DNA from: Acetatifactor muris
GTDB taxonomy: Bacteria > Bacillota > Clostridia > Lachnospirales > Lachnospiraceae
Reading direction: 5' to 3'
Assembly (NCBI GenBank): GCA_023664365.1
Contig: JAMPFR010000015.1
Location: 1-64,000 of the forward strand
DNA length: 64,000 nucleotides
The stretch's first letter is position 1; each line of letters starts with the position of its first letter. The translations under genes and the position numbers were made by a program. Shown piece after piece: positions 88-3,309 of the stretch. Below the pieces are notes generated by a model. That model worked only from the letters and a program-made list of their open reading frames with translations. It did no database searches and was not told the DNA's origin.

Positions 88-1767
88 TTATGCCGCGCCT
101 GCAGAATATAATTTCTGAAAAATTCCCGAATTTTCCATCAGTTCCTGAAAAGTACCCTGTTCCACAATCCTCCCATCATCCATTACAAATATCTTGTCGT
201 ATTTCTGCAATACATTAGAATACAACTTATGTGTTACAGCAATACTGGTTACATTTTTCAGTTCTAAAAGGCTTTCCTCGATTTCCCGCGCACACTCATT
301 ATCTAAAGAAGAGGTGGCCTCATCAAGCAAAAGAACGCTTTTGTTATGCAGCAGCGCTCTGGCGATAGCAATACGCTGCTTTTCTCCTCCAGAGAAACGT
401 GATCCGTTTTCTTCAACCTTTGTATCAAGTCCTTCTTCCAAACGATCTATTGTCTCTCTTAGTCCTGCCATGCGAATCACTCTATCAAGCGCATCTGCCG
501 AATATTCCCGATACAAGGTTATATTATTTCTGACAGAATCGTCAAAAAGAAAAATATTTTGAGAAATCAGTGACAGACTGCATGATTGATTCATAACCCC
601 ATCCACATCCACGGTGCCCGTATAGTCTTTATAATAGCCTGCCAATATCTTCAACAATGTGCTTTTTCCGCTGCCGCTTTTACCTACAATGGCATATTTT
701 TTCCCCGAATCAAACTGCGCTTTTATATTCTTGATAACTGGCGTGTCACCATACGAAAACGATAAATCCTCCAGCTTCAGTGAACGCTCCATTTCCTTTG
801 TCCCTGAAACGTTCTCCGCACACTGTGATGATTGAACCACTGCTTGAATCTGATCACAGATCGGTTTCATAGCTTTCAGCTGGCTAAATTTTGCGGAAAG
901 CTGAAAAGCCGGAGAAATTACCTGTCCTGTCAACTGCGTCACAGCAATAATACTTCCAATGGTAATAAATCCGCGTACTGCAAACACACCACATAATGTC
1001 ATAATCAGGAATTGCACGGAAATCGAAGCCATATTTGCAAGACCATACAACCAAGCCATTGCGTCAGCAGACGAAACCTTGCTCTGTTCCAGCTTTGCAG
1101 CTGCTTCATTGTGTTTTTTGCCTATTATGTCATCAATATGATAGGCTTTAATTACCTCACAGCCATTTAATATATCTTTAATTTTTACATTATAATCGGC
1201 TGCACATTGCATGATGTCTCCTTGAAGTTTACCGAGTCTGTTTCCAAACAGCTTGGGAATCAGACTGGGAATGGTCATAGCAATAATGGATATTACTGCA
1301 ATAATCGGGTTAATATAAATCAATAAAACTACTGCAATCAAAATACCAACAAGTGATTCATAAATTGAAAGCAGATTTTTGAGATAATTCTCTTCAAATA
1401 CACTGAGATTTTGATTGAGCAGGGTAATATATTCCGCACTGTTTGTATTCTGCAGTTCCGATATATTTTTGTTTAAAATTCCATTCAGAATTTTTTCACG
1501 AATATGCAGCATAATATGCTTGATGCCGAGGGCCTTCATTTTCTCTCCAACCAAAATCACCAGACCAAGAAGCAGGGCATAAGCACAGCATATGCCTGCA
1601 CACCTGACAAGTGCAGATATTTGTCCTGACGTAATTGCCATGGATACAGAATCAATCAGATAATTGATCAGGATTGCGACCCCGACGGTTCCAAAGGTTC
1701 TTAGGGTCTGAAACAGTATTAGTAATACAAGCCTTGTTTTGTTTTTATAGTAAAGATACTTACGCAT
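88..1767 (-). CDS. ABC exporter, fused permease and ATPase
   Basis: This 559-residue half-transporter has an N-terminal membrane region of about six helices (residues 10-300) and a C-terminal ATPase. The ATPase shows a Walker A (GKSGSGKST, near 355), a signature FSGGEKQR and a Walker B VLLLDEAT followed by an H-loop (AVTHK). The layout matches type I exporters of lipids, drugs or peptides. No N-terminal C39 peptidase domain is present, so it would not process double-glycine leaders. A GGAGAG ribosome binding site precedes the ATG. It lies 171 bp downstream of a tiny polyvaline peptide gene and further downstream of an Rgg-like regulator, all on one strand, so its likely cargo is that peptide or a modified form. 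The DNA is AT-rich compared with the polysaccharide core. Cargo is inference; the family assignment is firm. Confidence 0.9.
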   Translation of the reverse strand: MRKYLYYKNKTRLVLLILFQTLRTFGTVGVAILINYLIDSVSMAITSGQISALVRCAGICCAYALLLGLVILVGEKMKALGIKHIMLHIREKILNGILNKNISELQNTNSAEYITLLNQNLSVFEENYLKNLLSIYESLVGILIAVVLLIYINPIIAVISIIAMTIPSLIPKLFGNRLGKLQGDIMQCAADYNVKIKDILNGCEVIKAYHIDDIIGKKHNEAAAKLEQSKVSSADAMAWLYGLANMASISVQFLIMTLCGVFAVRGFITIGSIIAVTQLTGQVISPAFQLSAKFSQLKAMKPICDQIQAVVQSSQCAENVSGTKEMERSLKLEDLSFSYGDTPVIKNIKAQFDSGKKYAIVGKSGSGKSTLLKILAGYYKDYTGTVDVDGVMNQSCSLSLISQNIFLFDDSVRNNITLYREYSADALDRVIRMAGLRETIDRLEEGLDTKVEENGSRFSGGEKQRIAIARALLHNKSVLLLDEATSSLDNECAREIEESLLELKNVTSIAVTHKLYSNVLQKYDKIFVMDDGRIVEQGTFQELMENSGIFQKLYSAGAA

Positions 1768-1806
1768 ACTCTCTCTCCAATCTTATAACCCATTTTTGCC
1801 ATAAAT

Positions 1807-1850
1807 GTGGAAATAAGGAATCAAAAAAATTTACTATCCCTTATTTCCAC
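1807..1850 (-). other. Stem-loop between peptide gene and exporter
   Basis: GTGGAAATAAGG (1807-1818) and CCTTATTTCCAC (1839-1850) form a perfect 12-bp stem with a 20-nt loop. In the minus transcript the stem is not followed by a U-run, so it is not a classical terminator. It could protect the 3' end of the peptide message or dampen read-through into the exporter. Confidence 0.6.
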
Positions 1851-1938
1851 TTTCCTTTTGTAGTTGCATTTTTTATTTATGTGCACAAGTAAAAAAGATA
1901 AATTTTCCTGTACGGAATTAATATCAACAAAAAAGACC

Positions 1939-1995
1939 TTAATTGCCGGTGACAACAACTACAACAACTACAACGACTACAGTACCTGTGTTCAT
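1939..1995 (-). CDS. 18-residue polyvaline peptide, putative signal or exported peptide
   Basis: The frame encodes MNTGTVVVVVVVVVVTGN and ends in TAA. A strong ribosome binding site (AAAGGGGG, 2003-2010) sits 7 nt before the ATG. This is good evidence for translation, because almost no other constraint would produce that spacing. The ten valines use mixed GTA, GTT and GTC codons. The gene lies between an Rgg-like regulator and an ABC exporter on the same strand, the usual place for the short hydrophobic pheromones of RNPP regulators. Streptococcal SHP peptides are likewise short and rich in Val and Ile. An alternative is a valine-codon attenuator leader, but the downstream gene is not an amino-acid pathway gene and the stem-loop lacks a U-run. 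Calling it a pheromone is inference. Confidence 0.7.
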   Translation of the reverse strand: MNTGTVVVVVVVVVVTGN

Positions 1996-2033
1996 ATGCT
2001 CACCCCCTTTCTTTTGCAACTACTGCATAAATT

Positions 2034-2077
2034 ATTATAGTTTCTCAGAAGAGGGATTCCATATCGTTAGATGATAT
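2034..2077 (-). promoter_or_regulatory. Promoter of the peptide gene with inverted-repeat operator
   Basis: On the minus strand a perfect -10 (TATAAT, 2034-2039) has no good -35: the hexamer at 2057-2062 reads ATGGAA. In its place, overlapping and just upstream, is the inverted repeat ATATC-N7-GATAT at 2061-2077, centred about 42 bp before the expected start of transcription. A weak -35 plus an operator at that position is the arrangement expected for an activator-dependent promoter. Whether the Rgg-like protein binds there is inference. Confidence 0.6.
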
Positions 2078-2160
2078 AAAAAAAATTTACATAAAATGTT
2101 ATATTTCTCTAAGTCAATATTCCATTGCAAGCAACGGGGTATTGACCCTCGCGGCATTCG

Positions 2161-3114
2161 TCAAATATCCATGCAAGCATGGTTATTTTCCTCATTGCTC
2201 GCGGGAATAAACAGATTTAGTTCCTTCTCTGCAAAATTTCGTGCCAACGCAGCAAACTCCGCTTTTTTCACAAGTTCCATATATGGAATAATCGCCTTTA
2301 ATATGGTATGGCTTTCCGCGTCATTGCCTTGCAAGTGCAATATCTTTGCTTTTATAAATTGAATTTCAGGCAGCAACATCTGTTCCTGACTGCTCATACT
2401 CAGTGATTCAGCTTCCTGGCAATACATTAACGCTTCCTTGTATCTATACTCCTTTTCCATATATTGCGCAAGATTAAATGCGACATTAATTCGCAAAAGA
2501 TTATAGCCGCTTATAGTTGATACATGCTTCTTCAGGGAACAGAATAACTCTTCTCCTAAATGGATGGCTCTGATCGTCTCATTAGAACGAAAAAGTGCTG
2601 CAGTAATTACATTTAGAATATTTGCTTCTCGGACTGTCAAAAGTTCATTCCGAAAATCAAGGAAATCAAACGATGGCTTTGTAATCTCAATAGCTTTATA
2701 TAAAATTGACAGAACCTTTTCCATGTTCGTTTCCTCATATAACTTAATAGTTGCCGACAGCAATAAGTAATATTGCATATTTACGGAATCATTATTTGCG
2801 GCTTTTTCCAGTGCAGCCAGCTTATCTTTTGCTTCCGGCAATTGACCTGAACTCAATAATTCGGCAACTCGATCTGCTTCCTGATTAAAAGCAATCTGCT
2901 TGTCAGTTTGATAATAAATATTACAAATCTGGTATGTGCTTGTACCAAGTCTGCTTAATAAAGCTTCCAACACACTATTGGAAGGCATTTGAGTTCCGTT
3001 CTCAATTCGTGACACTGATATTGGCGAACATATTCCTTCCGCTAATTCTTCTTGTGTTATATGTGCCCTTTTTCTTAATGATCGTATGATCTCTCCCAAC
3101 GTATTATTACTCAT
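2161..3114 (-). CDS. Rgg-like (RNPP-type) transcriptional regulator
   Basis: The 317-residue protein starts with an XRE-type helix-turn-helix (about residues 5-60, with TQEELAEGI and SVSRIENG). An all-helical C-terminal domain with TPR-like repeats fills the rest. Rgg and PlcR regulators have this length and layout; their C-terminal domain binds a short imported peptide. The gene lies just upstream of the polyvaline peptide gene, about 165 bp away, and has its own promoter. Orientation is tandem, not divergent as in many streptococcal Rgg/SHP pairs. AT-rich composition and an isolated position between terminators suggest that regulator, peptide and exporter moved as a unit. Family membership is well supported; the peptide ligand is inferred from context. 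Confidence 0.8.
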   Translation of the reverse strand: MSNNTLGEIIRSLRKRAHITQEELAEGICSPISVSRIENGTQMPSNSVLEALLSRLGTSTYQICNIYYQTDKQIAFNQEADRVAELLSSGQLPEAKDKLAALEKAANNDSVNMQYYLLLSATIKLYEETNMEKVLSILYKAIEITKPSFDFLDFRNELLTVREANILNVITAALFRSNETIRAIHLGEELFCSLKKHVSTISGYNLLRINVAFNLAQYMEKEYRYKEALMYCQEAESLSMSSQEQMLLPEIQFIKAKILHLQGNDAESHTILKAIIPYMELVKKAEFAALARNFAEKELNLFIPASNEENNHACMDI

Positions 3115-3199
3115 AGTATATTAACCTCCGTTCCGCCTTGGGCAACTCAGACAGACATAAGACCAGCGGCGATTCGTTACCACTATAACATGTTGTTGT

Positions 3200-3236
3200 A
3201 TATCGATATTATACATGATACGTTTAGATCAGGCAA
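3200..3236 (-). promoter_or_regulatory. Promoter of the Rgg-like regulator with palindrome
   Basis: The minus strand carries TTGCCT (3231-3236), a 17-bp spacer and TATAAT (3208-3213). The palindrome ATATCGATAT (3200-3209) overlaps the downstream edge of the -10 box. Its half-sites, ATATC and GATAT, are the same as those of the inverted repeat at the peptide promoter, so autoregulation is plausible. Confidence 0.65.
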
Positions 3237-3251
3237 GTGACTGAAAACAAC

Positions 3252-3309
3252 AAAATGACTGTGTACTGCCTCCGTCGTTTGCCAATTCGGCGCAGTACAC
3301 AGTCATTTT
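3252..3309 (-). terminator. Rho-independent terminator after htrA
   Basis: AAAATGACTGTGTACTGC (3252-3269) pairs perfectly with 3292-3309, an 18-bp stem with a 22-nt loop. T-rich tracts lie on both sides, so it may work in both directions. It closes the htrA unit and insulates the regulator cassette. Confidence 0.9.

What the first reader, a model, noticed from the sequence alone, without database searches (positions are those of the whole stretch)
88..3236. Rgg-like regulator, polyvaline micropeptide and ABC exporter form a possible new signalling or bacteriocin cassette
The sequence shows three same-strand genes: an HTH/TPR regulator of RNPP layout, an 18-residue peptide MNTGTVVVVVVVVVVTGN with an excellent ribosome binding site, and an ABC half-exporter. 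RNPP regulators are known to be controlled by short hydrophobic peptides encoded next to them. A run of ten valines is far more extreme than the SHP peptides I know. The cassette is AT-rich and bounded by a strong terminator. That the peptide is the ligand or cargo is inference.
Basis: partly seen in the sequence, partly recalled or inferred. Interest (0 to 1): 0.85.

Follow-up and report, generated by a model that had tools for sequence, protein, structure and literature searches.

The report
Leaderless valine/isoleucine signal peptide with exporter
A gut bacterium carries a three-gene unit (a peptide-sensing switch protein, a tiny gene for a peptide made mostly of valine, and a membrane exporter), and relatives carry differently spelled valine/isoleucine peptides in the same slot, so this is probably a little-known kind of bacterial chemical signalling rather than a chance open frame.

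Summary
On the minus strand lie an HTH-TPR regulator (3114-2161), the frame MNTGTVVVVVVVVVVTGN (1995-1939) behind a strong Shine-Dalgarno site, and an ABC half-exporter (1767-88). The peptide is not a chance frame: of 29 related regulator loci, 8 carry an intact leaderless Val/Ile-rich micropeptide beside the exporter (e.g. MDIIIILIN, MGVIIVIVVV, MDVVIIIIIVVS, MVIIIIVRM). Two more keep a broken frame. In about 1 Mb of background, one other Shine-Dalgarno-preceded small ORF has such a run. An operator-like element lies before the peptide/exporter in 28 of 29 loci, in 25 of them 20-21 nt from a -10-like box; there is no -35 consensus, suggesting direct activation. The regulator family is RNPP; its best solved relative is PlcR, and Rgg models do not hit the window protein. 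The peptides resemble mature streptococcal SHP pheromones without their leader. Best reading: a Clostridia counterpart of leaderless communication peptide signalling, with an exporter in the same unit. Binding, secretion, activation and exporter cargo are inferred. Against: 19 loci have regulator and exporter without the peptide, presence is scattered on the tree, and the window's Val run is a DNA tandem repeat. New variant of a known kind.

The parts
2161..3114 (-). RNPP-type transcriptional regulator, 317 aa: N-terminal HTH_3 and C-terminal TPR-like region
   Evidence: HTH_3 E 5.7e-12; family profile hits PlcR 2qfc over positions 1-266, E 1.4e-15; RNPP_C in 10 of 25 family members, though not in the window protein itself
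2059..2104 (-). Palindrome-like operator ATATAACATTTTATGTAAATTTTTTTTATATCATCTAACGATATGG (approximate bounds)
   Evidence: Aligned in 18 loci; operator pattern found just after the regulator in 18 of 24 loci; right arm recognised in 28 of 29 loci
2034..2039 (-). -10 box TATAAT, 20 nt after the operator's ATG; the hexamer at a 17-nt spacing is ATGGAA, so there is no -35 consensus
   Evidence: -10-like hexamer (at least 4 of 6) at 20 or 21 nt in 25 of 28 loci
1999..2010 (-). Shine-Dalgarno site AAAGGGGGTGAG of the peptide gene
   Evidence: Sequence; Shine-Dalgarno-like sites before the other seven intact peptides
1939..1995 (-). Leaderless micropeptide gene, MNTGTVVVVVVVVVVTGN
   Evidence: Val/Ile-rich peptides in the same slot in seven other loci
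1807..1850 (-). Stem-loop between peptide and exporter (GTGGAAATAAGG ... CCTTATTTCCAC), no T-run after it
   Evidence: Sequence and fold; no terminator-like match
88..1767 (-). ABC half-exporter (membrane domain plus ATPase), 559 aa, no peptidase domain found
   Evidence: ABC_membrane E 1.6e-21 and ABC_tran E 2.5e-27; distances track those of the regulator, r 0.906 over 25 loci
3208..3236 (-). Promoter-like site of the regulator gene, TTGCCT-17-TATAAT
   Evidence: Consensus scan, 10 of 12 matches; 8 sites found against 5.4 expected in shuffles, so weak
3256..3305 (.). Hairpin, probably the terminator of the upstream protease gene; upstream edge of the cassette
   Evidence: Sequence, by eye

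Best explanation
A leaderless peptide-signalling unit. The RNPP-type regulator binds the operator 3' of its own gene and activates a promoter that has a good -10 but no -35. That promoter makes an mRNA for the micropeptide and the ABC exporter. The micropeptide is made directly as a mature-like pheromone, with no signal or leader segment, is exported (plausibly by the co-encoded exporter), re-enters neighbouring cells and binds the regulator's TPR groove, which raises transcription of peptide and exporter (positive feedback). Shown here by sequence: the gene order, the shared operator/-10 geometry, the recurrence of Val/Ile-rich peptides with Shine-Dalgarno sites in the slot, co-divergence of regulator and exporter, and two loci in which the peptide frame is broken while regulator, operator and exporter are kept. 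Inferred: translation, secretion, which transporter exports, re-import, binding, activation rather than repression, and the biological output.
For: Eight of 29 regulator loci carry an intact Val/Ile-rich peptide in the slot. Among 2751 Shine-Dalgarno-preceded ORFs of 6-35 codons in 1,010,192 bases (some loci overlap), a Val/Ile run of 5 or more occurs in 7, and 6 of the 7 lie in the regulator-exporter slot; a further one, L184, was found later. Peptides differ in sequence but keep the composition, as pheromones of diverging specificity would. They resemble mature SHPs: EGIIVIVVG, DIIIIVGG, DILIIVGG (passages of PMC3679016; PMC13361665). The family profile matches PlcR along HTH and TPR. Window N214, nearly invariant over 41 regulators, aligns with PlcR N201 by my count on that alignment. 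RopB N192 contacts its peptide's backbone (passage of PMC6565748); that PlcR N159/N201 do so, and that RopB N192 is the equivalent position, is recalled. Operator and -10 keep a 20-21 nt spacing in 25 of 28 loci. Regulator and exporter distances correlate, r 0.906, 0 of 999 permutations as high. In the pair L184/L185 (599 of 626 aligned columns identical) operator to -10 are identical, while L185 lacks the Shine-Dalgarno site and start codon that the peptide has in L184. The own genome encodes SBP_bac_5 peptide-binding proteins, so an uptake route is possible. In L. reuteri a synthetic leaderless peptide induces an ABC transporter (passage of PMC10518010).
Against: Nineteen of 29 loci have regulator and exporter but no recognisable peptide, so the exporter's ancestral cargo need not be the peptide. 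Peptide presence is scattered: 6 changes on the tree, and 84 of 500 label shuffles are as low. The closest relative (L071, 88% identity) has only a frame without an ATG, GTG or TTG before the run. L185 still has a longer frame (28 codons) over the same run from an ATG inside the operator, upstream of the -10, so probably not transcribed. The window's Val run is a DNA tandem repeat and may be partly slippage. L065's longest Val/Ile run is 4. An 18-residue peptide with ten Val is longer and, I expect, more aggregation-prone than known ligands. TIGR01716 does not hit the window regulator. No structure model was obtained. No expression or peptide data were available.
Confidence: 0.6

Rival explanations
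1. Cis-acting leader: the Val/Ile codons are read as a branched-chain amino acid (or ribosome-stalling) sensor that controls expression of the exporter by attenuation, like ilv leader peptides.
For: Runs of Val/Ile codons upstream of a gene are the hallmark of ilv leaders (recalled). By eye, a clear stem-loop lies between peptide and exporter in six of the seven loci folded, all but L074. L070 and L072 have a terminator-like site there. Loss of the frame with retention of the exporter would also fit a dispensable leader.
Against: A terminator-like site after the peptide is found in only 2 of 8 loci, not in the window. The codon run pairs with downstream RNA no better than with mononucleotide-shuffled downstream sequence: shuffles at least as good were 190, 291, 30, 295, 70, 118 and 195 of 300 in seven loci (L184 not tested). 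No Rfam family reaches its gathering score in window 1700-2200. An exporter is an odd target for amino acid starvation (inference).
Confidence: 0.13
2. The peptide is the exported product (a leaderless bacteriocin, toxin or surface-active peptide); the exporter gives secretion or immunity and the regulator senses something else.
For: Exporter in the same unit; very hydrophobic peptide; leaderless bacteriocins exist (recalled; one paper on them, PMC5413573, is in the listing).
Against: Nine to 18 residues is short for such products (recalled). Sequences diverge freely. No modification or immunity gene shared between loci was seen by eye among the large frames near 12 loci. Known RNPP regulators bind peptides (recalled, and passages).
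Confidence: 0.15
3. The unit is basically a sensor-efflux pair for foreign hydrophobic peptides; the micropeptide is a later add-on in some lineages (self-inducer or decoy).
For: Regulator, operator-like element and exporter without the peptide occur in records named Lachnospiraceae, Oscillospiraceae, Treponema or Spirochaetaceae, and Olsenella and in L144 from another family of the order, so the pair can work alone.
Against: In peptide-bearing loci the peptide gene sits behind the same operator and -10 with its own Shine-Dalgarno site. Two loci keep broken frames, pointing to losses as well as absences.
Confidence: 0.1
4. Chance ORF created by a GTTGTAGTT microsatellite.
For: The Val run coincides with a 9-bp tandem repeat.
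Against: Seven other loci have Val/Ile-rich peptides in the slot with differing codons. Scaling the single background hit gives about 0.003 expected in 29 slots (rough).
Confidence: 0.02

Closest known systems
Leaderless communication peptides (LCP) with RopB-clan receptors (PMC10518010)
   Same: Ultrasmall leaderless hydrophobic peptide with a Shine-Dalgarno site beside a TPR regulator; in L. reuteri the peptide induces an ABC transporter
   Different: The paper names six families, all Bacilli; LCPs are generally divergent from the receptor (PMC13361665 passage). Here 7 of 8 are co-directional and downstream, the hosts are mostly Clostridia, the peptides are Val/Ile-rich, the regulator leans to PlcR and a half-exporter is in the same unit
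Rgg/SHP systems of streptococci (PMC3679016, PMC13361665)
   Same: Peptide composition: mature SHPs such as DIIIIVGG and EGIIVIVVG are nearly all Ile/Val
   Different: SHPs are made as precursors and use PptAB and Eep (passages); here the frame has no room for a leader, and TIGR01716 does not hit the window regulator
PlcR/PapR of the Bacillus cereus group
   Same: Best solved relative of the regulator family; PlcR is an activator that binds a defined box (passages); papR lying just downstream of plcR is recalled
   Different: PapR is a secreted precursor with a different mature peptide and no exporter gene beside it (both recalled)
ilv-type attenuation leader peptides
   Same: Val/Ile-rich short frame upstream of a gene
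   Different: No consistent terminator or codon-run pairing; target is an exporter

Membership tests
RNPP/RRNPP regulator superfamily | N-terminal HTH plus C-terminal TPR-type peptide-binding domain | tested here: met
   HTH_3 in 25 of 25, TPR_2 in 13 and RNPP_C in 10 of 25 family members; family profile matches PlcR over both domains, E 1.4e-15. The window protein alone shows only the HTH at E 0.01
RNPP/RRNPP regulator superfamily | Direct binding of a short peptide | not testable with these tools
   Needs a binding assay; the structure queue was full at every attempt
Rgg subfamily | TIGR01716 / Rgg_C domain | tested here: not met
   TIGR01716 does not match the window regulator at E up to 1 in the own-genome search and is not among hits of 5 members; Rgg_C matches 2 of 25 members, not the window protein
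LCP (RopB clan) | Leaderless small hydrophobic ORF with Shine-Dalgarno site next to the receptor | tested here: met
   Window and seven other loci
LCP (RopB clan) | Receptor passes the paper's filter (RopB homologue, TIGR01716) and falls in the RopB clan | tested here: not met
   TIGR01716 part not met. Identity to RopB was not measured and no tree with RopB was built
LCP (RopB clan) | Peptide secreted, re-imported and active as signal | not testable with these tools
   Experiment needed
SHP precursor | Longer precursor with N-terminal leader and C-terminal mature part | tested here: not met
   18 codons; the stop-to-stop frame begins 8 codons upstream of the ATG
ilv-type attenuator | Terminator and alternative pairing after the codon run | tested here: not met
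   Terminator-like site in 2 of 8 loci, none in the window; pairing no better than shuffles in 7 loci
Peptidase-containing bacteriocin exporters | N-terminal C39 peptidase domain | tested here: not met
   Only ABC_membrane and ABC_tran score above their cut-offs

The most novel reading that the evidence does not exclude
A mainly Clostridia class of leaderless pheromones made largely of beta-branched residues (in the window a run of ten valines), sensed by PlcR-like receptors and released by a dedicated exporter in the same regulated unit, in which the signal gene is repeatedly silenced while receptor and exporter are kept (listeners that no longer speak).
Probability: 0.4. Interest if true: 0.82.

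Novelty: new variant of a known kind. Interest (0 to 1): 0.68.

Why it matters
The 2023 LCP paper states that export and import mechanisms of leaderless peptides are unknown and that the canonical machineries are not used by SIP (passages). A leaderless peptide encoded in one regulated unit with an exporter makes that question directly testable. It would also extend leaderless peptide signalling from Bacilli to gut Clostridia; none of the papers listed in my searches (lists capped at 20, 20, 15 and 10) appeared from title and abstract start to be on such a system. The L184/L185 pair offers a natural comparison of closely related loci with and without an intact signal gene.

Tried and rejected
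Attenuation: tested by folding and duplex shuffles, terminator scans and Rfam; not supported as a shared feature. Bacteriocin cassette: large frames near 12 loci listed and compared by eye only; apart from regulator and exporter I saw nothing shared, except that the sister loci L066 and L068 share neighbours. Defence system: PADLOC gave matches to HTH and ATPase parts only. Plasmid or virus carriage: 6 plasmid records matched about the first 75 residues at most, none covering 80% of the query; one weak viral-contig match. Exporter subfamily from PDB: the best 60 of 127 matches are general ABCB/ABCC-type exporters and MsbA. More distant regulators (L005-L032, L144-L172): no Shine-Dalgarno-preceded small frame with a Val/Ile run of 5 in the flanks held, about 1.5 kb or less.

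Rows dropped before counts: of the 80 loci I used L063-L086 (24); L087 and L096 (both broken or rearranged) and the 54 more distant ones were left out. The 29 are the window, these 24, and L184-L187. L144-L146, fairly close regulators of another family, are not among the 29; of these I read L144 (exporter and operator-like element, no peptide). L191 was left out of the tree because my motif rule missed it; on the + strand of the stretch held no large frame follows it. The operator pattern, the -10 test and the run-of-5 rule were set after seeing sequences. The first background scans used ATG starts only and missed L069, found with GTG. L065 has a run of 4 and does not pass the run-of-5 rule. 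A note of mine put L184/L185 at about 97% identity; the count is 599 of 626 columns.
Full report
WHAT IS THERE. All three genes lie on the minus strand of the window, which is G000:C66:1-64000. The regulator is 3114-2161, the peptide frame 1995-1939, the exporter 1767-88. The peptide is MNTGTVVVVVVVVVVTGN, preceded by AAAGAAAGGGGGTGAGCAT. Eight GTN in a row occur in the window only inside this frame, and in none of 100 shuffles. The codons are a mixture of GTA, GTC and GTT, but the stretch is also a 9-bp tandem repeat, so slippage may have lengthened it. The cassette has 38.1% GC against 50.2% for the window, and only 11 of 138 genomes of the genus, the window's own included, have a close regulator (E up to 1e-50); together these suggest horizontal acquisition (inference). 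The genus is probably Acetatifactor (Lachnospiraceae): same-genus handles G826, G828 and G799 have slot sequences like those of records L071, L064 and L068, which bear that name; the handles themselves are unnamed.

IS THE PEPTIDE REAL? I collected relatives by regulator and exporter searches and read the slot between regulator and exporter. Among 29 regulator loci, 8 have an intact frame behind a Shine-Dalgarno-like site: window MNTGTVVVVVVVVVVTGN; L072 MIANPMDEVIIIIIVTQ; L069 MDVVIIIIIVVS (GTG start; peptide and exporter divergent from the regulator); L074 MDIIIILIN; L067 MGVIIVIVVV; L070 MNRVIVIIIQ; L184 MVIIIIVRM; L065 MDTISTVVIVYIEIIVKK. In L071, the closest relative (88% identity), a frame containing RVIIYVVVGIN has no ATG, GTG or TTG before the run. 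In L185, which matches L184 in 599 of 626 aligned columns, the Shine-Dalgarno site and the start codon are gone while operator to -10 are identical; a longer frame over the run starts inside the operator, upstream of the -10. In the remaining 19 loci my scans show nothing like it; L080 has an unrelated 54-codon frame there. As background, 1,010,192 bases held 2751 Shine-Dalgarno-preceded ORFs of 6-35 codons; 7 have a Val/Ile run of at least 5, and 6 of these lie in this slot. The seventh is L052 (see noticed items). Scaled from that single hit, about 0.003 would be expected in 29 slots (rough). The codons in the other loci are varied, so selection on the amino acids is the simplest reading.

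HOW IT IS CONTROLLED. After the regulator (in L069 before the exporter) lies a conserved, palindrome-like element, roughly ATAACAAATCATGTAAGTTT...TTAACATGnnnCGATATGG, aligned in 18 loci including Treponema and Olsenella. A pattern for it hits just after the regulator in 18 of 24 loci, and 70 times in all in 1,125,681 bases on both strands. With a looser pattern its right arm is recognised in 28 of 29 loci; a -10-like hexamer (at least 4 of 6) follows at 20 or 21 nt in 25 of the 28. L074's best scored at 17 nt, and L075 and L076 have only 3 of 6. The hexamer at -35 spacing has no consensus. The loci are related, so these are not independent counts. An operator lying over a missing -35 is typical of activation (established knowledge), so I infer that the regulator activates this promoter. 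Regulator and exporter distances correlate (r 0.906, 0 of 999 permutations, 25 loci), so they seem to travel as a unit.

WHAT THE REGULATOR IS. Pfam finds the HTH. The family profile matches PlcR along HTH and TPR with E 1.4e-15; the entries that I take for Rgg (5w4m, 4yv6; identity recalled) come at 7e-6 to 3e-5, ComR at 0.001 and PrgX at 0.05. RNPP_C is found in 10 and Rgg_C in 2 of 25 members. TIGR01716 matches nothing at the window locus and is not among the hits for 5 members. Window N214 is nearly invariant over 41 regulators and aligns with PlcR N201 by my count; RopB N192 and R188 contact the backbone of its peptide (PMC6565748, passages). The equivalence of these positions is recalled, not tested by structure.

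MECHANISM. I favour a leaderless pheromone loop: regulator plus peptide activates the peptide-exporter transcript; the peptide leaves, plausibly through the exporter, and returns, perhaps through an oligopeptide permease, for which the genome has binding proteins. For one leaderless peptide, however, Opp was not needed for import (PMC10518010 passage). The composition is that of mature SHPs such as DIIIIVGG and EGIIVIVVG (PMC3679016 passages). In that family the leading acidic residue matters for activity (PMC3150281 passage), and three of the peptides here start with MD. Leaderless communication peptides are an established class in Bacilli (PMC10518010: abstract, section 12, the first of two parts of section 6, and passages), and one of them induces an ABC transporter.

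RIVALS. An attenuation leader is the serious alternative because Val/Ile codon runs are its hallmark. I found a terminator-like site after the peptide in 2 of 8 loci, no codon-run pairing beyond shuffles in seven loci, and no Rfam match at gathering score in window 1700-2200. Clear stem-loops between peptide and exporter do occur in six of seven folds, the window included, so some post-transcriptional role is not excluded. A bacteriocin or effector role and a sensor-efflux pair with a late-added peptide remain possible; the 19 peptide-less loci speak most for the last. On the regulator tree the peptide needs 6 changes and is not significantly clustered (84 of 500 shuffles as low), which fits repeated loss but does not prove a single origin.

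WHAT IS KNOWN. It works like LCP or SHP signalling. By membership it is an RNPP-family regulator at family level, and it is not an Rgg member by the TIGR01716 and Rgg_C criteria; its place relative to the RopB clan was not tested by a tree. Its closest class is LCP; it differs in host group, receptor branch, gene order, peptide composition and the exporter in the unit. None of the papers listed in my searches appeared from title and abstract start to be on such a system in Lachnospiraceae; the lists are capped and the library lacks most subscription journals.

LIMITS. No structure could be modelled (queue full, 24 attempts). I had no expression or peptide data. The contig ends 87 bases after the exporter, so downstream genes of the window's unit are unknown.

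Noticed in passing
L192:132-194 (same as L052:4523): Another Shine-Dalgarno-preceded Val/Ile-run peptide, MSGIIIVIQLKMLLASERGV, followed by a hairpin with a T-run (by eye) and, further on, a 626-aa frame with a P-loop-like motif; not in the regulator-exporter slot, and it may be a true attenuation leader.
   Followed up: partly
G000:C105:9515-11317 (L002, L003): The own genome has a 613-aa open frame with two successive matches to the regulator, as if two HTH-TPR units were fused; 600-700 aa frames of this kind recur in the genus.
   Followed up: no
L116, L128 (downstream of roughly 600-aa regulator frames): Large inverted repeats around CCATAACAAAACTGGCACAT (by eye) lie beside double-length regulators; the outer ends resemble the operator of this family.
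   Followed up: no
L080:5930-6227: The slot holds a Shine-Dalgarno-preceded 54-codon basic frame instead of a Val/Ile peptide.
   Followed up: no
L068:9120-10750: A frame with a CxxxCxxC motif typical of radical SAM enzymes and a nitroreductase-like frame (both labels recalled) lie downstream of the peptide-less pair.
   Followed up: no
L096:200-930: Regulator start apparently joined in frame to exporter remnants: an internally deleted copy of the unit.
   Followed up: partly
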